DNA of 64,000 nucleotides from Barnesiella intestinihominis YIT 11860 (GTDB lineage Bacteria; Bacteroidota; Bacteroidia; Bacteroidales; Barnesiellaceae): positions 744,001 to 808,000 of the forward strand of contig NZ_JH815203.1 in assembly GCF_000296465.1 (NCBI RefSeq), written 5' to 3'. Positions 53,330 to 63,936 of the stretch are shown here, piece by piece. The notes under the pieces were generated by a model. It did not search any database. It saw only the letters and a program-made list of their open reading frames with translations, and was not told the DNA's origin. Position numbers and translations under genes: made by a program. Numbering within the stretch: position 1 is the stretch's first letter; each line of letters starts with the position of its first letter.

Positions 53330-54150
53330 CCCCAATGCTACGGGGGGGCAGAGGAGGTAGCACGTAGTGACGGAAGGGTTGAAAACGGCATCTCATTAGC
53401 CGGTTTATATTGGACATTTAACCCCCTCGCCCGATGGGCACTCCCCCTATACCGCTACGCGGCACAGGGGGAGAGAGCTAAAATGCGCTTCAAATATTTT
53501 AAACTCCTCCATTGCCGTGCCCCGTAGCTTTATGGGGTATTTCTGTTTCACTATCGGAGACATTTAAAACTCCTCCCCTGTGTGACGCCAGCCATATAGG
53601 GGAGGTGGCACGTAGTGACGGAGGGGTTGAAAACAGCCTCTCATCAGCCGGTTTATATTGATCATTTAACCCCCTCGCCCGATGGGCACTCCCCCTATAC
53701 CACTGCGCGGCACAGGGGGAGAGGTTGAAAAGTGTCGCTTCGAAAATTTTAAACTCCTCCATTGCCGTGCCCCGTAGCTTTATGGGGTATTTCTGTTTCA
53801 CTATCGGAGACATTTAAAACTCCTCCCCTGTGTGACGCCAGCCATATAGGGGAGGTGGCACGTAGTGACGGAGGGGTTGAAAACAGCCTCTCATCAGCCG
53901 GTTTATATTGATCATTTAACCCCCTCGCCCGATGGGCACTCCCCCTATACCACTGCGCGGCACAGGGGGAGAGGTTGAAAAGTGTCGCTTCGAAAATTTT
54001 AAACTCCTCCATTGCCGTGCCCCGTAGCTTTATGGGGTATTTCTGTTTCACTATCGGAGACATTTAAAACTCCTCCCCTGTGTGACGCCAGCCATATAGG
54101 GGAGGTGGCACGTAGTGACGGAGGGGTTGAAAACAGCCCCTCATCAACCG
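53330..54150. repeat. 250-bp tandem repeat array
   Basis: About three near-identical units of 250 bp, beginning at 53501, 53751 and 54001 with AAACTCCTCCATTGCCGTGC, with a partial unit at about 53340-53500. Each unit has two imperfect hairpins: CTCCCCT...AGGGGAG and CTCCCCCTATACC...GCACAGGGGGAG. Units 2 and 3 are almost identical, so the array is recent or homogenised. ORFs of 104 aa over it repeat exactly with the array and are not genes. It fills the gap between M16 and the zinc-ribbon gene (53287-54166). Confidence 0.9.
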
Positions 54151-55993: not shown

Positions 55994-57004
55994 TTACTTA
56001 CTCAAAGCCTGAGCTACATCGACAGCACAAGCCACGGTGCAACCCACCATAGGGTTATTACCGATACCGAGGAATCCCATCATTTCTACGTGAGCAGGAA
56101 CTGACGAAGACCCGGCAAACTGAGCATCGCTGTGCATACGACCCATTGTATCGGTCATACCGTAAGAAGCAGGACCGGCAGCCATGTTGTCGGGGTGCAA
56201 AGTACGACCCGTACCGCCACCGGAAGCTACCGAGAAATATTTCTTACCCTTCTCTACGCACTCTTTCTTGTAAGTACCGGCTACGGGGTGTTGGAAACGG
56301 GTAGGGTTCGTAGAGTTACCCGTGATAGATACGTCTACACCTTCGTGCCACATGATAGCCACGCCTTCGCGCACATCATCGGCTCCATAACATTTTACTT
56401 TGGCACGTTCACCTTTGGAATAAGCTATTTCACGAACTACCTTCAACTCGCCCGTATAATAGTCGAATTGTGTTTGAACGTAGGTAAATCCATTGATACG
56501 CGAAATGATTTGAGCAGCATCTTTACCCAGACCGTTCAAAATACAACGCAAAGGTTCCTTGCGCACTTTATCGGCCTTAGCGGCAATTTTGATAGCGCCC
56601 TCGGCTGCGGCGAACGACTCGTGGCCGGCAAGGAATGCAAAACATTTCGTCTCTTCGCGAAGCAAACGAGCGGCCAAATTTCCATGTCCGAGACCCACTT
56701 TGCGGTCATCGGCTACCGAACCGGGAATACAGAACGACTGCAAACCGATACCGATAGCTTCGGCTGCATCAGCAGCATTCTTACAACCTTTCTTCAAAGC
56801 GATAGCAGCACCTACCACGTAAGCCCATTTTGCATTCTCGAAACAAATAGGTTGTGTCTCTTCACAAGTTTTATAAGGATCGAGTCCATAAGATTCGCAG
56901 ATAGCGTTAGCCTCTTCAATATCTTTAATACCGTTAGCGTTCAAAGCGGCAAGAATTTGCTTGATACGACGGTCTTGACTTTCAAATTTCACTTCTCTAA
57001 TCAT
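55994..57004 (-). CDS. GGGtGRT family protein
   Basis: 336 residues with the defining motif SVASGGGTGRT (about 265-275). Other patterns: IGLQSFCIPGSVADDRKVGLGHGNLAARLLREE, and a cysteine-bearing end GNNPMVGCTVACAVDVAQAL. The family is found in anaerobes and consistently paired with a NifU/TSCPD-like gene. Its function is not established; a role in iron-sulfur or radical chemistry is inferred. A strong Shine-Dalgarno site (57011-57020) precedes it and the partner lies 18 bp upstream. Confidence 0.92.
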   Translation of the reverse strand: MIREVKFESQDRRIKQILAALNANGIKDIEEANAICESYGLDPYKTCEETQPICFENAKWAYVVGAAIALKKGCKNAADAAEAIGIGLQSFCIPGSVADDRKVGLGHGNLAARLLREETKCFAFLAGHESFAAAEGAIKIAAKADKVRKEPLRCILNGLGKDAAQIISRINGFTYVQTQFDYYTGELKVVREIAYSKGERAKVKCYGADDVREGVAIMWHEGVDVSITGNSTNPTRFQHPVAGTYKKECVEKGKKYFSVASGGGTGRTLHPDNMAAGPASYGMTDTMGRMHSDAQFAGSSSVPAHVEMMGFLGIGNNPMVGCTVACAVDVAQALSK

Positions 57005-57010
57005 AGTAAC

Positions 57011-57020
57011 TTCCTCCTTA
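57011..57020 (-). promoter_or_regulatory. Unusually strong Shine-Dalgarno site
   Basis: The minus strand reads TAAGGAGGAA, 6 nt before the GGGtGRT start. Few genes in the window have such a site; it suggests high or independent translation of the second cistron. Confidence 0.8.
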
Positions 57021-57022
57021 TT

Positions 57023-57724
57023 TTATTCGTGACGGGGATCTATATATTTCACTGCACCGGCCTCTTTGGTGAAACGTCCGTAAGTTCCGGTTACCTTCTT
57101 CAATGCCTCGTTGGCATCGGTTCCTTTCTTGATTTCGTCCATGAATTTACCCATGTGAACAAATTCATATCCGCAGATTTCATCGTTTTCATCAAGAGCA
57201 AGAGTTTTTATATAACCCTCTGCCATTTCAAGATAACGAGGACCTTTGGCCAATGTACCGTACAACGTACCTACTTGGCTGCGCAATCCTTTACCGAGGT
57301 CTTCGAGACCTGCACCGATCATCAAACCGCCTTCCGAGAAAGCCGATTGAGTACGCCCGTAAACGATTTGCAGGAATAACTCGCGCATAGCCGTATTGAT
57401 GGCATCACAAACGAGGTCGGTATTCAGAGCTTCCAAAATAGTTTTACCCGGAAGGATTTCCGATGCCATAGCGGCCGAGTGGGTCATACCCGAACAACCG
57501 ATAGTCTCTACCAATGCCTCTTGAATAACACCGTTCTTTACATTCAACGTCAGTTTACATGCACCCTGTTGAGGAGCACACCAACCGATACCATGAGTCA
57601 AGCCCGAAATATCAATCACTTCTTTTGCCTTCACCCATTTTCCCTCTTCGGGGATAGGAGCCGGTCCGTGATTAGGACCTTTCTTTACAACACACATGTG
57701 TTCTACTTCGTGTGAATAAACCAT
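57023..57724 (-). CDS. NifU/TSCPD-like iron-sulfur scaffold protein
   Basis: 233 residues. WCAPQQGACKLTLNVKNGVIQEALVETIGCSGMT (about 45-80) holds three cysteines placed as in IscU/NifU-type scaffolds and TSCPD proteins; ASEILPGKTILEALN continues the fold. A C-terminal half (about 150-233) with YLEMAEGYIKTLALDEND is extra to IscU. It is always found with GGGtGRT proteins, as here, and is the first gene of the pair. The substrate cluster or client is unknown. Confidence 0.88.
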   Translation of the reverse strand: MVYSHEVEHMCVVKKGPNHGPAPIPEEGKWVKAKEVIDISGLTHGIGWCAPQQGACKLTLNVKNGVIQEALVETIGCSGMTHSAAMASEILPGKTILEALNTDLVCDAINTAMRELFLQIVYGRTQSAFSEGGLMIGAGLEDLGKGLRSQVGTLYGTLAKGPRYLEMAEGYIKTLALDENDEICGYEFVHMGKFMDEIKKGTDANEALKKVTGTYGRFTKEAGAVKYIDPRHE

Positions 57725-57847: not shown

Positions 57848-59680
57848 TCAATCGTTTTCAGAAGAGTCAGAGGGAATAATACCCATTTTTCTCATGAGAA
57901 AACAGGCGTTCATATTTTCGGCTATACCCGGCTGTAACCGATAAGAAAAAGTAAGTTCGTCTCCTTGTATAGCTGCCTCGAAGCGATAATTGCCGACTTT
58001 TCCGGGCAGACTATCGGCAAGTTTGCCCAAAGCCAAATCATGAGTAGCGATAATTCCCGTTGCTCCGGCCCCGACCAACTGACGGATAAGAGCAAGCGAA
58101 CCGGTCTGCTTATCGACCGAGTTGGTTCCCCGCAGTATCTCGTCGAGAATAATAAATAATTTCTCCCCACGACGTAAACGCAAAACGATTTGCTGCAAAC
58201 GTTTCAATTCGGCAAAAAAGTAAGACTCGTTATCGGCAAGAGAATCAGAGGCCCGCAATCCGGTAAACAAAGGCAACGGAGTAAAAGTCATGCTATCGGC
58301 ACAAACGGGAGCGCCCATGCAGCCGAGTAAATAATTGATTCCGATAGTCCTCAAAAACGTACTCTTCCCGGCCATATTGGCTCCGGTGATAATCTGGAAA
58401 GAAGCCTCGTTCATGGGCGCAACATCGTTACAGACGCGCTTCTCTCTCGGGATAAGCGGGTGTCCCAGAGCTTCGGCCTGCATAACCGGGGTGCGATCTT
58501 CCCGTATATCGGGAAATACATAGTCGGGGTGATTGTATCGAAAAGTTCCTAACGAGACATATACGTCGAACCGCGACAATACATCTATCCATTGCGTTAT
58601 TTTTTCACGATTGTCACACAGCCATCGGTCGAGCGCGTTGATTTGCCGCAAATCCCAAAGCAGAAATCCGTTCAACAAGGCGAATCCTACGAAATTGTAG
58701 CGTTGGTCGAGATTGCTGAGCAAATGCCGTAAACGGGACACCCTCTGCGAGACAGAGCCGTTGCTGTCAACACACCGGCTTTGTAACTCACTCAATGGCT
58801 TGCACCGGAATCGCGTCCGCTCCATCATCTCGAACAGACGTGAATAACGAGAAAGCGATTGAAGCGTCCGGTTGAGCTGTTCTTGTATGCGGGTTACCCG
58901 TTTGGCAAATAGACCGGACAAAACCAACAAAAAAATGAAAACCGCCACGATCACATTCCCTGCGACCATTCCCGTTAACCATAAAGCGAATAAGGCAAGA
59001 TAAACCGCAGGAACCGCATAAACCAGCCAACGCACAATCCGCCCCGTTCCGAACCGAGGCATTCCGGCAAGCCGTTCGATAGCCTCGGTATCTACCCGGC
59101 TCTCTCCCGAACAGCCCCCGTATGATTGAAAATCTATCCTGAAATCCGTATGGCAGGACATTTCCTCGACAGCCTCCTGCCTCTCCCGAATAGACGCAGT
59201 TTTCAAATCGGGGTGAAGCAACTCCCGGGACAACGCGACTCGCCCTACTGTCGTCGCTGTGCGATTGATATAGGCGAAGAAGGACCTCTCGCCGAAAAGG
59301 TCGAGGTCGAAGCTATAATCATGGGAAGGGTCGATGAATTCACTGCCCCCGTCGATTCCGTCGAAACGATATTCCAACAAGGACAATTCCCTATGAATAA
59401 TCCGGTCCCGACAATCGACAAATTCTTTTTTCCGAAACCAGCGATCGTGCACCTGGGCCAACGACAGGAACAGAACGATTCCTATCAATACGGTTGTGCC
59501 CCACACCTCTACACCCTCATTTCTAAACAAATACACGATCAATGTCGCAACAACGACTACCGAAAGACGAAGAAAAGCAATGATACGAATATACATTTTT
59601 ATCCGCTCCGTTTCCCGGCTGTTAGCTTGAAGTCGGGAACGGTAATCTCGCAGGACTTTTTCCATAATCACCAATGACAA
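57848..59680 (-). CDS. Membrane-anchored MutS-family ATPase
   Basis: 610 residues. Two pairs of hydrophobic helices (about 31-52 / 61-78 and 217-238 / 241-259) flank a cytosolic segment. The C-terminal half has MutS core helices (about 285-380), then the ATPase domain: Walker A GANMAGKSTFLRT (433-445), LRASDSLADNESYFFAELKRL (signature-like, 475-495), Walker B FIILDEILRGT (509-519) and the TGIIATHDLALGKL switch. No mismatch-recognition or Smr nuclease domain is present, so it differs from MutS1 and MutS2. It starts 7 bp after the channel gene, hence co-transcribed. Its role is unknown. Confidence 0.9.
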   Translation of the reverse strand: MSLVIMEKVLRDYRSRLQANSRETERIKMYIRIIAFLRLSVVVVATLIVYLFRNEGVEVWGTTVLIGIVLFLSLAQVHDRWFRKKEFVDCRDRIIHRELSLLEYRFDGIDGGSEFIDPSHDYSFDLDLFGERSFFAYINRTATTVGRVALSRELLHPDLKTASIRERQEAVEEMSCHTDFRIDFQSYGGCSGESRVDTEAIERLAGMPRFGTGRIVRWLVYAVPAVYLALFALWLTGMVAGNVIVAVFIFLLVLSGLFAKRVTRIQEQLNRTLQSLSRYSRLFEMMERTRFRCKPLSELQSRCVDSNGSVSQRVSRLRHLLSNLDQRYNFVGFALLNGFLLWDLRQINALDRWLCDNREKITQWIDVLSRFDVYVSLGTFRYNHPDYVFPDIREDRTPVMQAEALGHPLIPREKRVCNDVAPMNEASFQIITGANMAGKSTFLRTIGINYLLGCMGAPVCADSMTFTPLPLFTGLRASDSLADNESYFFAELKRLQQIVLRLRRGEKLFIILDEILRGTNSVDKQTGSLALIRQLVGAGATGIIATHDLALGKLADSLPGKVGNYRFEAAIQGDELTFSYRLQPGIAENMNACFLMRKMGIIPSDSSEND

Positions 59681-59687
59681 AAAATGA

Positions 59688-61868
59688 TTATACCCTCCAC
59701 AAATATTTCATAATCAATCGATCGTAATCCTTAACCGATTCGCTCAATGCTTCATACGGTTTGATATAAGTATGGGCAAAAGATTCACGCTCTATCTTTC
59801 TTTTCCGTTCCTTGCCCAATCGTTGTATCTCCTCGTCTTCTCCGGAAGTTGTAGGACGATACCCCATAATCAGTTTCTCCATATTCCAACGATTGTGTTC
59901 CACTTCTGCCATCATCTCGATCAAAGCAGTATCTTCATCGAGATTTTCAGGTTCCGATTTTCCGAAACTTCTTCGCTTGGAAGGAATAGAGTGGGCATTG
60001 TAAACATTCGACCAACGATGCACGGTAGACAATTCTTCCCACAATGCCCTTGCCTCGATATCGTTCAATGTTTGCGGGAAAGGCTGTTCGGGAGTTATTT
60101 TATGATAAATAAAGTTTATCCGCCGTACCCGTTTCATGCAATCGTCGTCTATGTCATAGCACTCGTCCAACATGCCGAACGCCCTCAATTTACCGTATTG
60201 ATGAGCTTTTCGTATCAATTCGATGGTCGAGCAGGAAACATTCTGACGCACGAGTATCGAATGAGCCTTTTCATACACGAGCCGAGGCATATAAAGTGCC
60301 GTAGCGATACTCTTTTGAGGAATTTCGAAACAGATAGCGATAGTCAACAACCGTCCGTCTTCCTCCTCTGCCCAATGTTGTAGCAACTCTTGTATCGGAC
60401 GGCTCTCGACAGAACCTTTGATAAATTCAAACTCTATGTCGGTAAACTTATCATCGGTATTCGGGTTGGCATAACTCTTAGCTGGCTCTACCGTATCGAT
60501 AACTCGATAGTCGCACATGTCGAACAAAGAGTTGTATCTGCCCCGCAACCGATCGAACTCGGTGTCGGCATTCATGTCGATAAAAGAGATTCGAGTCCGT
60601 TTACTCCGGTCTCGAAGGAAATTGGGATAATGGGCGATATGAGCGGCTTTCACCCCCATGGCGATTCCCATGCTGGTCATTCCCACAATGACGAGATGGA
60701 CGTATCGGTTGCTGTCATAACCGATTCCGTCACCGTCGATAGGTACATAACGTATGACTTCCGAACCTTTGTCATGCGGAGTATACAGGCCTCGCACCAA
60801 CACCTTCTCCGCCCAAGTTTCATAAAAATTAAACGGCAGAAAATCGATAAGCCTTTCGCTCAATCGATTGAAAGTCAGCATTAATTTCAATAATTTTTCA
60901 TTCTCCGCACCGTCTTTATATTTTTTTTGGAAATGCACCAGCCATTGCTTCTCAGTCTTCTTCGGAAGTTGGAATATAGATTCTATATCATACCGTTGAA
61001 ATACGGCAAAGGTCGATTGAGCTTCGAAAAGCACATTACATTTTTTACAACGGCCCTGTATTTGCGCTACCAACATACGCAGCTCCTCTATATCCCGGGG
61101 CTCTTTTCCTATTGCGTTCTTTTCCCGCAAAATCCTATTAATGAGAGCCGCACATTCGATATTGATCGAGTCATGATCGGTTTCATTCTCCTCGCCCAAC
61201 AAAAATATCTCCTTGCAATCCGGCAAATACAGTTTCTCCAAATCTTCCCGCGAATCGCGGCCCCCGTGCAAAATTATCGTACGACGGTCGATAGAGGCAT
61301 CAAGTTTGGACAACAACTCGTGACGGGCAGAATCGACGCTACCCGAAGTCTGAATGACAAACAAATAAGGCGTATGATCCGACTGTTCGGCCACACTCTT
61401 TTGATACAACTGTTTGATAAGCCCGATAGCCATCTTATCGAACCCTATAATCACATAATGATTCCTAAATTTATAGCCTATCTGACCCTCCCTCGCACGC
61501 TCTACCCGGCGGTCGATAATATTCGAGAAAATAGAGATGAGCAAACCGCCCATCAGTGCAGACCCGGTGATCGAAATAAGGAATGCAAGGAATCGATTCC
61601 ATGTCCCTTCGACGACATACTGATTGCCGGGATCGGCAAAATGATAATAGACATCAACAAAAATATTACGTGGGTCGTTCTCCTTAATAGTAAGAATACT
61701 GCCTGTAAGCCATTCGATTACGATGAACAAAAGAATAGCAGCAACGATAACACCCAGTAAAAAAAGCAATTGCCATTTGATACCCGATGACAAAATCCGG
61801 TCTATACCGATAACCGGGTGTCTGAAAAAATCCTTCATCGCCCCGAAAAATTCTTTTAGTCTTTTCAT
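59688..61868 (-). CDS. CASTOR/POLLUX-like channel with tandem Rossmann domains and C-terminal RyR domain
   Basis: 726 residues. Two membrane helices (32-56 and 92-118) flank a pore loop with the filter-like motif F77-ADPGN-Q83, close to the ADxGN filter of plant CASTOR/POLLUX nuclear cation channels. Two Rossmann-like RCK units follow: HYVIIGFDKMAIGLIKQL (137-154) and HLVIVGMTSMGIAMGVKAAH (391-410). The last 70 residues (about 655-726) form an RyR domain, with EVEHNRWNMEKLIMGYRP and ending YIKPYEAL..SVKDYDRLI. The preceding RyR gene overlaps it by 4 bp. Ligand-gated ion flux across the inner membrane is the likely act; the ligand is unknown. Confidence 0.88.
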   Translation of the reverse strand: MKRLKEFFGAMKDFFRHPVIGIDRILSSGIKWQLLFLLGVIVAAILLFIVIEWLTGSILTIKENDPRNIFVDVYYHFADPGNQYVVEGTWNRFLAFLISITGSALMGGLLISIFSNIIDRRVERAREGQIGYKFRNHYVIIGFDKMAIGLIKQLYQKSVAEQSDHTPYLFVIQTSGSVDSARHELLSKLDASIDRRTIILHGGRDSREDLEKLYLPDCKEIFLLGEENETDHDSINIECAALINRILREKNAIGKEPRDIEELRMLVAQIQGRCKKCNVLFEAQSTFAVFQRYDIESIFQLPKKTEKQWLVHFQKKYKDGAENEKLLKLMLTFNRLSERLIDFLPFNFYETWAEKVLVRGLYTPHDKGSEVIRYVPIDGDGIGYDSNRYVHLVIVGMTSMGIAMGVKAAHIAHYPNFLRDRSKRTRISFIDMNADTEFDRLRGRYNSLFDMCDYRVIDTVEPAKSYANPNTDDKFTDIEFEFIKGSVESRPIQELLQHWAEEEDGRLLTIAICFEIPQKSIATALYMPRLVYEKAHSILVRQNVSCSTIELIRKAHQYGKLRAFGMLDECYDIDDDCMKRVRRINFIYHKITPEQPFPQTLNDIEARALWEELSTVHRWSNVYNAHSIPSKRRSFGKSEPENLDEDTALIEMMAEVEHNRWNMEKLIMGYRPTTSGEDEEIQRLGKERKRKIERESFAHTYIKPYEALSESVKDYDRLIMKYLWRV

Positions 61869-62167
61869 CTCTTCTTCACAATATCGAATCCCAACGCTTG
61901 TATCAGTTTAAGCGTCCCTATCGCTGTGTTGCGATCGTAATCCTTTTCTATTTCGGGTAATTCCTCATAAGGCACGAGACAGGGATGCGTCTTCTTCTCA
62001 TCGTCCCGTCGCGCTCCGTAAGTCCACCCTTCGGACAAACGAGATTGCGACCATACCTCATGAACATTTTTCGCCATTACCTCGACCAACTCCATAAGTT
62101 CCTCCGGTAGTTTTTCCCGGCTGGTATCCGTCGGAGCCGGAATATACTTTTCGCGTTTCATCGTCAT
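61865..62167 (-). CDS. Stand-alone RyR-domain protein
   Basis: 100 residues, nearly all one RyR domain: VHEVWSQSRLSEGWTYGARR, then THPCLVPYEELPEIEKDYDRN. The name comes from the repeat in animal ryanodine receptors; bacterial members are largely uncharacterised. A second in-frame ATG at 62161 is possible. It overlaps the channel gene (ATGA), so it is the first cistron of the operon, driven by a consensus promoter. It may share or compete for the ligand of the channel's own RyR domain. Confidence 0.88.
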   Translation of the reverse strand: MTMKREKYIPAPTDTSREKLPEELMELVEVMAKNVHEVWSQSRLSEGWTYGARRDDEKKTHPCLVPYEELPEIEKDYDRNTAIGTLKLIQALGFDIVKKR

Positions 62168-62192
62168 ACTGTATTATCCAAGTTATTTTCCC

Positions 62193-62223
62193 CAAAGATA
62201 GCATAAGGCGAGTACAGGACAAA
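62193..62223 (-). promoter_or_regulatory. Promoter of the RyR-channel-MutS operon
   Basis: The minus strand has TTTG (62220-62223), a 19-nt spacer, then TATCTTTG (62193-62200), 26 nt before the first ATG. This is among the best matches in the window. Confidence 0.75.
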
Positions 62224-62279: not shown

Positions 62280-62612
62280 AAACTCCTCCTCTGCCGTGCC
62301 CCGTAGCATTACGGGGTGTTTTGTAACGCAAAATATAGGGGGAGGTGGCACGCAGTGACGGAGGGATTAGTTCTAAAAAATCCTATATGCCTCTTTCTAA
62401 CCCCTCTCTTCGTCTCCACCGCTCCTCTGTCTCTCCTCTATACCGCTTCGCAACACAAGGGTGAAGGGGAAAGCTTTCTCGCCTTACCGGCAAAATTACA
62501 CGATAAAAGAGTGTCGCAAAACTCCTCCTCTGCCGTGCCCCATAGCATTACGGGGTGTTTTGCAACGCAAAATATAGGGGAGGTGGCACGTAGTGACGGA
62601 GGGGTTAGTTCT
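62280..62612. repeat. Intergenic palindromic repeat family, two direct copies
   Basis: Two nearly identical modules, 62281-62372 and 62521-62612, 240 bp apart: ACTCCTCCTCTGCCGTGCCC, a CATTACGGGGTGTTTTG core, then GGAGGTGGCACGnAGTGACGG. The DNA between carries a diverged CTCTCCTCTATACCGC module. It fills most of the 62224-62706 gap; no gene is present. Confidence 0.8.
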
Positions 62613-62706: not shown

Positions 62707-63936
62707 CTACCTCACATCTAATGTACGCCGCATCACAAAATGCTCGTCGAGTTCTTCGGTTTTGAGGTACAGCTCCACTTCGTAACGCCCGGCTGGGAAT
62801 GGGCTTGTTATACCGTTCGGACCTTCCAGCCTCATGGAACTGGATACTTCGAAATCTTGTTGAAAAATATCTTTCGAGTCCGGTTCATTAGTGACTGCAT
62901 CTTGAACACTGGTATAAACTAAGTTACCCTCCATATAGAACTTGAATATCAATTTCAATGAATGTCCTTTTTCAAGCGAGCGCCACTGGAATCCGGCTAA
63001 TAGCCTTTTGTATGTATTGGCTTTGAAAGATTTCTGTTCAATGATTTTTCCCTCGTAGATGTGCAATGCGCAATCATAAGTAACCCATTGTTGCACTTCT
63101 TCATCGGTATTGTAAAAATGAAGCACCAATGCCAAAGGTTCTATCCAGCCTCGCTGCTTAGGCGATTTCACGACCTCGAATCGCCCACGACCCATTTCTC
63201 GATTCTTATAGTAAAGAGTGTAAGTATGAGTGCCGGGAGCATAAGAAGTACCGGAATCGGAGCCCCAGCCACATATTTGCAACCATTGGGATCCATCTCG
63301 GGGATTGAGTGTGACTGTGTGGTCGAACGCTTTGATTTTGCCTGTCCTTTCATTCTTGATCTCCACATGGTAAGTAACCTTGCGCACAACGTCCGAATAG
63401 CAGGTACATCGGCAACGCATTTGCATATACTTGGGCTCCACGAAGTTGCCTGTATTCCAATCATCGATCACTTCACCATTGCCGTTGATATTACGAAATT
63501 CAAGGTTCGAGACAATATGAATCCAACCCATGCTTTCCCAAATGTCTTCCAACGGAGCTATTTCGAGCGGAGCACTGATAACCACATGATCTTCTTCATC
63601 AAGAATATCGAACCGCCATGTACCGACCGCAGTGAAATGGTCTCGCTTTTCCGACCCCCACCACGGAAATTGCGCCGACATGTTCTCAACGGGTTTTAAC
63701 GGGGCATCGAAGTCGTAGGTATGAGTTTTGCCGCTTGGTTCGGTAATGCGTACTTTTATCTTGACGGTGCGGTCGATGCGCGATGTCATCTTCACCACAG
63801 GCATAATATAGCGAGAGTCGGTATAGTGTTTGCTACTTGGCCGGGTATCGCGTTTGCCGTCTTTACCCACTTCGCAAAATTCGAGCGAATGGATTTCGTA
63901 CCCGCGATCTTTCTTGAACAAATCGAATAATCCCAT
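62707..63936 (-). CDS. Cytosolic beta-rich protein, unknown function
   Basis: 409 residues from MGLFDLFKKDRGYEIHSLEF at 63936; the longer frame to 63999 crosses the promoter. No signal peptide or membrane helix. The sequence is almost entirely beta strand, with three or four immunoglobulin-like units: about 35-130 (MPVVKMTSRIDRTVKIKVRI ... AVGTWRFDILDEEDHVV), 135-260 (SNLEFRNINGNG ... SYAPGTHTYTLYYKN) and 270-409 (ALVLHFYNTDEE ... FPAGRYEVELYLK). Tryptophans recur at strand ends. I do not recognise the family. Confidence 0.7.
   Translation of the reverse strand: MGLFDLFKKDRGYEIHSLEFCEVGKDGKRDTRPSSKHYTDSRYIMPVVKMTSRIDRTVKIKVRITEPSGKTHTYDFDAPLKPVENMSAQFPWWGSEKRDHFTAVGTWRFDILDEEDHVVISAPLEIAPLEDIWESMGWIHIVSNLEFRNINGNGEVIDDWNTGNFVEPKYMQMRCRCTCYSDVVRKVTYHVEIKNERTGKIKAFDHTVTLNPRDGSQWLQICGWGSDSGTSYAPGTHTYTLYYKNREMGRGRFEVVKSPKQRGWIEPLALVLHFYNTDEEVQQWVTYDCALHIYEGKIIEQKSFKANTYKRLLAGFQWRSLEKGHSLKLIFKFYMEGNLVYTSVQDAVTNEPDSKDIFQQDFEVSSSMRLEGPNGITSPFPAGRYEVELYLKTEELDEHFVMRRTLDVR

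What the first reader, a model, noticed from the sequence alone, without database searches (positions are those of the whole stretch)
57848..62223. Operon of a RyR protein, a CASTOR/POLLUX-like channel with its own RyR domain, and a membrane MutS ATPase
Three genes are tightly coupled (4-bp overlap, then a 7-bp gap) under one consensus promoter. Seen directly: two RyR-type domains in one operon, one free and one fused to a two-helix channel with an ADPGN pore motif and two Rossmann units, followed by a MutS-core ATPase with four membrane helices and no mismatch or nuclease domain. Known: RyR domains and ADxGN filters belong to eukaryotic calcium-linked channels; bacterial RyR proteins are poorly studied. 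Inference: a ligand-gated ion-flux system, perhaps for stress or phage defence, with the RyR protein as a sensor or regulator and the MutS ATPase as a partner. I know of no described system of this layout.
Basis: partly seen in the sequence, partly recalled or inferred. Interest (0 to 1): 0.75.

Follow-up and report, generated by a model that had tools for sequence, protein, structure and literature searches.

The report
Bacterial channel with ryanodine-receptor sensor
A gut bacterium carries a small ryanodine-receptor-type protein next to an ion channel that ends in the same kind of sensor domain, and comparison across genomes ties the pair to TIR enzymes that make ADP-ribose alarm molecules, so this may be a bacterial forerunner of the cyclic-ADP-ribose/ryanodine-receptor signalling of animals.

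Summary
RyR (61865-62167) is a clear PF02026 member; the channel (59688-61868) is modelled with confidence as TM1-pore helix-DPGN filter-TM2, two RCK units and a C-terminal RyR domain. The third gene, a membrane MutS ATPase, looks resident rather than a partner: it is in 9 of 9 genus genomes while the channel is in 5 of 9, and in the order it does not co-occur with RyR. What does travel with RyR is TIR: 21 of 129 scanned operon neighbours of RyR genes against 3 of 111 distal genes. In the genus, TIR domains occur in exactly the five channel carriers, including one 1,890-aa TIR protein encoded elsewhere; in another contig its 73%-identical homologue lies directly behind channel-RyR. All four residues that hold 3'cADPR in phage RyDEP (H75, W78, H100, D117) are present in the free RyR and in the channel's RyR domain. 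Best reading: a TIR-signal-gated ion channel, a Thoeris-like effector of a kind I found undescribed. Ligand, direction of ion flow and defence role are inferred; one relevant preprint could not be read.

The parts
61865..62167 (-). Free RyR-domain protein, 100 aa; pocket residues H36, W39, H61, D78
   Evidence: PF02026 118.4 bits; pocket residues invariant in A2 (11 proteins) and in A6 (10 proteins, among them phage RyDEP and RyR proteins of a Ruegeria and a Pectobacterium phage); numbering checked
59688..61868 (-). Channel protein, 726 aa: 2TM pore, tandem RCK, C-terminal RyR domain
   Evidence: AlphaFold model pLDDT 91.5; Foldseek best GsuK E 2.7e-8 (whole-chain TM-score only about 0.3), then Slo, LjCASTOR gating ring, MthK; profile search
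61491..61781 (-). Pore domain, residues 30-126: TM1 30-55, pore helix 69-78, filter, TM2 89-126
   Evidence: Model secondary structure
61620..61634 (-). Selectivity-filter-like DPGNQ, residues 79-83
   Evidence: D79 34 of 44, P80 31 of 44, G81 34 of 44, N82 25 of 44 aligned channels
60969..61472 (-). RCK1 (first Rossmann unit), about residues 133-300
   Evidence: Slo-like_RCK weak match 133-243; model
60159..60704 (-). RCK2 (second Rossmann unit), about residues 389-570
   Evidence: Model strand-helix pattern; G396 44 of 44, D431 42 of 44
59706..59930 (-). C-terminal RyR domain of the channel, residues 647-721; pocket H658, W661, H699, D716
   Evidence: H658 41, W661 44, H699 43, D716 43 of 44 channels; profile match of this part to RyR structures E 2.5e-9
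62193..62223 (-). Bacteroidales-type promoter TTTG-N19-TATCTTTG for the RyR-channel operon
   Evidence: Pattern scan; consensus recalled
57848..59665 (-). Membrane MutS ATPase: downstream neighbour in the operon, probably resident and not part of the system (TTG start at 59680 also possible)
62707..63936 (-). Upstream protein of unknown function (409 aa, family g430); one to four tandem copies lie before RyR in relatives
   Evidence: no Pfam match up to E 1 for the window copy and only sub-threshold ones for relatives, no PDB match

Best explanation
The RyR gene and the channel gene are one unit: an ion channel opened by an ADP-ribose-type nucleotide made by a TIR-domain enzyme. A TIR protein (in this genome most likely the 1,892-aa TIR-Sel1 protein encoded elsewhere) is triggered by infection or stress and converts NAD+ into a cyclic-ADPR-like signal. 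The signal binds the RyR domain at the C-terminus of each channel subunit; the free RyR protein pairs with that domain to form a split version of the animal Repeat12 two-RyR module. Binding moves the RCK gating ring, the DPGN pore opens, and ion flux stops growth or kills the cell. Shown here: domain make-up, conserved pocket, conserved RyR-channel linkage, TIR linkage and co-occurrence. Inferred: the ligand, that RyR pairs with the channel, ion selectivity, trigger, and the defence role.
For: RyR-channel linkage: 47 of 80 named RyR loci have a channel-family gene in the same-strand run (gaps up to 150 bp), 33 of them adjacent or fused. Natural fusions of the two parts: L099 and L101. Pocket: the residues that hold the ligand in RyDEP (PMC13232231) are invariant in the aligned free RyR proteins and are among the most conserved residues of the whole channel. 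TIR linkage: TIR_2 is the commonest Pfam family among operon neighbours, 21 of 129, against 3 of 111 distal genes, one-sided p 3e-4 with genes taken as independent; a TIR gene is in the same-strand run in 34 of 80 loci, 18 of them with a channel too; 0 of 12 control loci (163 kb) had TIR. Order: 12 of 15 RyR genomes have TIR against 48 of 134 others, p 0.0012 without correction for phylogeny. Genus: TIR in 5 of 5 carriers, 0 of 4 non-carriers. L125: a TIR-Sel1 protein 72.6% identical over residues 1-1889 lies 137 bp behind channel-RyR.
Against: In this genus no TIR domain lies near the channel; the link is in trans. In 27 of 80 named loci a channel is present and no TIR gene was found in the stretch held, and in 15 a TIR gene and no channel (44 of the 80 stretches are cut short), so the TIR link belongs to RyR rather than to the channel alone. 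The genus pattern rests on few events: the rpoC-region tree needs only two changes. The L125 channel is only 30% identical to ours although its TIR protein is 73% identical, and its bin label (Rickettsiales) looks doubtful to me. The model of the L101 fusion did not resolve the pairing of two RyR domains: residues 664-721 have pLDDT under 50. 10 of 44 aligned channels lack the filter aspartate. Nothing here measures a ligand, a current or protection.
Confidence: 0.47

Rival explanations
1. Same pathway, other role for the free RyR: it is the off-switch. It hydrolyses or soaks up the TIR signal, as phage RyDEP proteins do, while the channel's own RyR domain is the only sensor.
For: RyDEP cleaves 2'/3'cADPR with this same pocket, and six of eight tested homologues bound the signals without cleaving them (PMC13232231); the catalytic pair H75/D117 of RyDEP is present as H36/D78 in the free RyR; free RyR genes also occur with neither channel nor TIR found (13 of 80 loci).
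Against: The same H and D are also present in the channel domain, which should be a sensor, so they do not by themselves mean hydrolysis; natural fusions L099 and L101 join the free-type RyR to the channel.
Confidence: 0.2
2. A housekeeping ion channel: RyR domains read a common metabolite (ATP, ADP, NAD, ADPR) and tune ion balance under stress, without any immune role.
For: Closest solved channel GsuK was solved with NAD and with ADP (entry titles); human RyR3 Repeat12 binds adenine ligands (PMC13232231 section 4).
Against: Patchy distribution (channel in 5 of 9 genus genomes, RyR in 15 of 149 order genomes) and the excess of TIR genes beside RyR fit accessory signalling better.
Confidence: 0.2
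3. One reading: RyR, channel and MutS ATPase work together.
For: Order RyR-channel-MutS kept in 5 of 5 carriers with spacing of -13 to 22 bp; a second lineage, G028, has MutS 108 bp from RyR, though without a channel found there.
Against: MutS in 9 of 9 genus genomes including four without channel; 68 of 149 order genomes have it (my count of genomes with E below 1e-70), 6 of 15 with RyR against 62 of 134 without, p 0.79; of 98 loci annotated, only the window, L055 (same genus) and L046 (G028) hold a full-length homologue.
Confidence: 0.06

Closest known systems
RyDEP and homologues (phage PF02026 proteins; PMC13232231, preprint)
   Same: Same domain family, same four pocket residues at the same spacing in the free RyR; bind TIR-made 2'/3'cADPR
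   Different: Phage anti-defence proteins that act alone; here a host gene beside, and a domain inside, a channel
Thoeris systems (TIR enzyme, nucleotide signal, effector; recalled and PMC13232231)
   Same: TIR genes are the commonest neighbours of RyR genes
   Different: Effector here would be a 2TM tandem-RCK channel with RyR sensor; in this genome the TIR is in trans; no phage protection shown
GsuK (4GX0-4GX5), Slo1/Slo2 channels
   Same: 2TM pore with tandem RCK gating ring, best fold and channel-profile matches
   Different: Filter DPGN instead of the potassium signature (recalled); extra C-terminal RyR domain
CASTOR/POLLUX (DMI1) plant channels
   Same: Gating ring is a fold match (E 3.5e-7); filter resembles the ADxGN type (recalled)
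   Different: Weak sequence match (E 0.011 and 0.013); no RyR domain (recalled)
Animal ryanodine receptor Repeat12
   Same: RyR units in a channel; adenine-ligand pocket
   Different: Giant receptor with tandem repeats in one chain; here one RyR in the channel and one in a separate protein
Oomycete PKDRR proteins (PMC7399828, title and start of abstract in a search listing only)
   Same: By title, a polycystin-type channel combined with a RyR domain
   Different: Eukaryotic, another channel family

Membership tests
RyR domain family PF02026 | Match over the curated cut-off | tested here: met
   Free RyR 118.4 bits against 27.4. The channel's own domain scores 18.6 alone, below cut-off, and is supported by profile instead
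RyDEP-type cADPR-binding pocket | H75, W78, H100, D117 equivalents | tested here: met
   Free RyR H36 W39 H61 D78; channel H658 W661 H699 D716
RyDEP-type cADPR-binding pocket | Binding or cleavage of 2'/3'cADPR | not testable with these tools
   Needs purified protein
2TM tandem-RCK channels (GsuK/Slo/MthK) | TM1, pore helix, TM2, Rossmann-type RCK units | tested here: met
Potassium-selective RCK channels | Potassium filter signature (recalled) | tested here: not met
   DPGNQ at residues 79-83; by eye none of the 44 listed filter stretches shows the signature
CASTOR/POLLUX | ADxGN-type filter and RCK gating ring, calcium conduction | tested here: inconclusive
   Filter and ring resemble, sequence match E 0.011; conduction not testable
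Thoeris | TIR gene in the same locus | tested here: not met
   None near the channel in this genome; TIR domains lie elsewhere. In related RyR loci a TIR gene is in the same-strand run in 34 of 80
Thoeris | Anti-phage activity through a TIR-made signal | not testable with these tools
   Needs phage challenge and nucleotide assays
DNA mismatch repair MutS | Mismatch-recognition domain I | tested here: not met
   Only MutS_III and MutS_V among MutS models; four hydrophobic segments instead

The most novel reading that the evidence does not exclude
A bacterial forerunner of cADPR/ryanodine-receptor signalling: a TIR enzyme makes a cyclic ADP-ribose isomer that directly opens an RCK channel through a split Repeat12 module, formed by the channel's own RyR domain and a separate RyR protein, as an immune effector.
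Probability: 0.33. Interest if true: 0.93.

Novelty: new variant of a known kind. Interest (0 to 1): 0.78.

Why it matters
Whether cyclic ADP-ribose acts directly on ryanodine receptors is an old open question (recalled; PMC13232231 raises it again). A small bacterial channel whose most conserved residues include the cADPR-holding residues of a phage RyR protein, and whose genes sit with TIR genes, makes the question directly testable in a simple system and would add ion channels with RyR sensors to the effectors of TIR immunity. It would also give a reason why so many phage records carry RyR proteins (284 records matched at E 0.01, at least one of them mislabelled bacterial DNA).

Tried and rejected
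Considered and rejected: MutS as a partner (see rivals). A phage origin, suggested by a 99% identical RyR in record MT836850.1 called 'Bacteriophage sp.': the record matches the window at 97-98% over two stretches and continues into the chromosomal genes found upstream in this genome. PADLOC on four window proteins gave only weak generic ATPase-type matches for MutS. NCBIfam gave no match over its cut-off for six window proteins. The g430 protein has no clear Pfam or PDB relative.

Led nowhere: first two literature searches; conserved-stretch scan with the channel alignment; second structure job, meant to show two RyR domains packing in the natural fusion L101, left residues 664-721 under pLDDT 50. 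I could not read Yirmiya et al. [quoted passage not shown] not held), which may describe related effectors; nor did I look up Burroughs et al. 2015 on nucleotide-centred conflict systems (recalled). That no RyR-channel/TIR system is in print rests only on searches of one open-access library, read as listings.

Mistakes corrected: the first gene caller lost RyR genes under antisense ORFs (replaced); an iterated channel profile drifted onto free RyR domains and gave an inflated 102 of 106 loci (replaced by a profile cut before the RyR part); the first rpoC tree had two loci in the wrong strand (redone). The MutS gene tree left the genus unresolved. Rows dropped: from the neighbour set, the genus loci and L042 (same contig as L121) and, by the size limit, the rest, so 129 of 229 neighbours were scanned; from the distal set I left out by hand 29 of 140 drawn rows (of 277), mostly ones cut by contig ends, so 111 were scanned. 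A5 holds 44 of the 75 long channel-family rows, full-length ones preferred. Three channel-profile hits that only touched the RyR part were left out of the counts. L055 is the same contig as G544 and L121 as G120, so these loci appear in two samples.
Full report
Observation. The free RyR protein is a strong PF02026 member (118.4 bits, cut-off 27.4) and matches solved RyR domains, among them the 'putative ryanodine receptor' chains 3NRT, 4N05 and 6UAG. The channel has only weak single-sequence matches, but its AlphaFold model is confident (pLDDT 91.5, pTM 0.87): TM1 30-55, pore helix 69-78, DPGNQ at 79-83, TM2 89-126, two Rossmann units, and helices at 647-721. Foldseek ranks GsuK first (E 2.7e-8, whole-chain TM-score about 0.3), then Slo channels, the CASTOR gating ring and MthK. 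A 44-sequence profile finds RyR structures (2.5e-9), GsuK (3.4e-6), CASTOR (0.011) and DMI1 (0.013). The promoter is a full match to the Bacteroidales pattern. The MutS protein has the ATPase core and four hydrophobic segments. The genus includes a contig titled uncultured Barnesiella sp. (L055, identical to the start of G544:C21).

What belongs together. In nine genomes of the genus the MutS gene is present in all nine and the channel in five. In the five, the order is always RyR-channel-MutS; in the other four MutS is there without RyR and channel, in three of them without any of the upstream genes and in G542 with one g430 gene left. In 149 genomes of the order MutS homologues with E below 1e-70 are in 68 (my count), in 6 of 15 RyR genomes and 62 of 134 others (p 0.79). 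MutS is therefore best read as a resident gene that RyR-channel is transcribed into, not a proven partner; the reason to keep it in mind is a second lineage (G028) with MutS 108 bp from RyR. RyR and channel do belong together: 8 order genomes have a strong channel match (E below 1e-30), 7 of these have RyR, and in 6 RyR lies next to a channel-family gene. Among 80 named RyR loci (the best 80 of 541, so biased to close relatives; 44 are cut short by contig ends) 52 hold a channel-family gene; in 47 it is in the same-strand run, in 33 adjacent or fused. Two natural fusions, L099 and L101, join a free-type RyR to the channel's C-terminus.

The TIR link. Pfam scans of 129 operon neighbours of RyR genes (71 loci) give TIR_2 as the commonest family, 21 of 129; 111 genes further away in the same set of loci give 3 (p 3e-4). 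PADLOC agrees: its TIR-type model PDLC02012 leads with 15 of 129, against 3 of 111. With a TIR profile, 40 of 80 named loci hold a TIR gene, 25 of them with a channel; 67 hold one or the other, 13 neither; 0 of 12 control loci (MutS neighbourhoods of other genera, 163 kb against 1.34 Mb) hold TIR. In 34 of 80 a TIR gene is in the same-strand run as RyR, in 16 directly adjacent, in 18 together with a channel. Over the order, TIR is in 12 of 15 RyR genomes and 48 of 134 others (p 0.0012, no correction for phylogeny); in 5 of the 15 a TIR domain lies within 5 kb of RyR (G020, G022, G028, G120, G146).

In this genus TIR is not in the operon. It is in trans: TIR domains (E up to 1e-3) occur in exactly the five channel carriers, and all five share one protein of about 1,890 aa with an N-terminal TIR; the copy of this genome has TIR_2 at 6-119 and 25 Sel1 stretches. 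The rpoC-region tree places the four non-carriers on two branches, so the pattern reflects at least two changes; this is suggestive, not strong. The telling case is L125: there a protein 72.6% identical to TIR-Sel1 over residues 1-1889 lies 137 bp behind a channel-RyR pair. The channel of that locus is only 30% identical to ours and the RyR 60%, so the parts seem exchangeable; and I doubt the contig's bin label.

The pocket. A preprint of May 2026 (PMC13232231; I read the first part of the text with the abstract, the sections on homology and catalysis, the figure legends and found passages) shows that the phage RyR-domain protein RyDEP cleaves the TIR products 2'cADPR and 3'cADPR, that six of eight tested homologues bind them without cleavage, and that H75, W78, H100 and D117 hold the ligand. 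I fetched RyDEP itself (phage DyoEdafos gp78) and checked the numbering. The window's free RyR has H36, W39, H61, D78 in the same spacing, invariant in ten aligned proteins including RyDEP and RyR proteins of a Ruegeria and a Pectobacterium phage (the paper's two sponge proteins come from phages of these hosts, but I did not check that they are the same proteins). The channel's domain has H658, W661, H699, D716, kept in 41, 44, 43 and 43 of 44 channels, while most of the protein varies. So both RyR units look able to hold an ADP-ribose-type ligand. RyDEP is a homodimer and animal Repeat12 is a tandem pair with two-fold symmetry; one RyR in the channel and one beside it would make the same pair. 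That pairing is inferred; the model of the L101 fusion did not resolve it.

Mechanism and limits. Most likely a TIR-made nucleotide opens a cation or non-selective channel through RyR sensors and an RCK ring. Steps shown: parts, pocket, linkage. Steps inferred: ligand, pairing, ion, trigger, outcome. Against: 27 of 80 loci have a channel and no TIR found in the stretch, 15 TIR and no channel; 10 of 44 channels lack the filter aspartate; RyR genes with neither partner exist, three of them in Bacteroides (L075, L082, L085). The free RyR may instead end the signal, as RyDEP does.

Novelty. TIR-nucleotide-effector systems are a known kind; a RyR-gated RCK channel as effector is not described in the listings I searched. 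One preprint on TIR systems could not be read. I therefore rate it a new variant of a known kind, with high interest if the ligand link is confirmed.

Noticed in passing
62707-63936: g430 family: about 400-aa protein starting MGLFDLFKKDRGY, in one to four copies upstream of RyR in relatives (4-bp overlap with RyR in G546), and left behind alone in G542, which lacks RyR-channel. Possibly a further part of the system.
   Followed up: partly
L259 (Priestia aryabhattai plasmid NZ_CP128553.1), 3653-11862: RyR gene directly behind an adenylate/guanylate cyclase gene in a run with a Pycsar-effector-family gene, and a TIR gene nearby on the other strand: RyR among defence-type genes on a Bacillota plasmid.
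   Followed up: no
L125 9568-15228: TIR-Sel1 protein of 1,886 aa in the same direction behind channel-RyR; contig is binned as Rickettsiales but the protein is 73% identical to that of this genus.
   Followed up: partly
L214 (MT836850.1): GenBank record named Bacteriophage sp. matches this bacterial locus at 97-98%.
   Followed up: yes
Genus g189 (20 of the 27 genomes with a match): Genomes of one genus in another class of the phylum carry RyR matches, mostly two close together in an open frame of 879-937 aa.
   Followed up: no
L061, L065, L117, L118 and others: A second RyR-fused protein type of 310-370 aa; in several loci beside a small protein that by eye resembles an ECF sigma factor (cluster 3, 16 loci; no Pfam match for the one tested).
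   Followed up: no
62303-62323 and 62542-62562: Repeated intergenic element (GTAGCATTACGGGGTGTTTTG): 4 matches in the window with up to 3 mismatches, 0.01 expected; repeat-like ORFs also at 53499-54063 and beside the TIR-Sel1 gene in L230.
   Followed up: partly
55994-57724: GGGtGRT protein (PF14057) and a NifU_N-like protein, 18 bp apart in the genus loci where both were seen.
   Followed up: no
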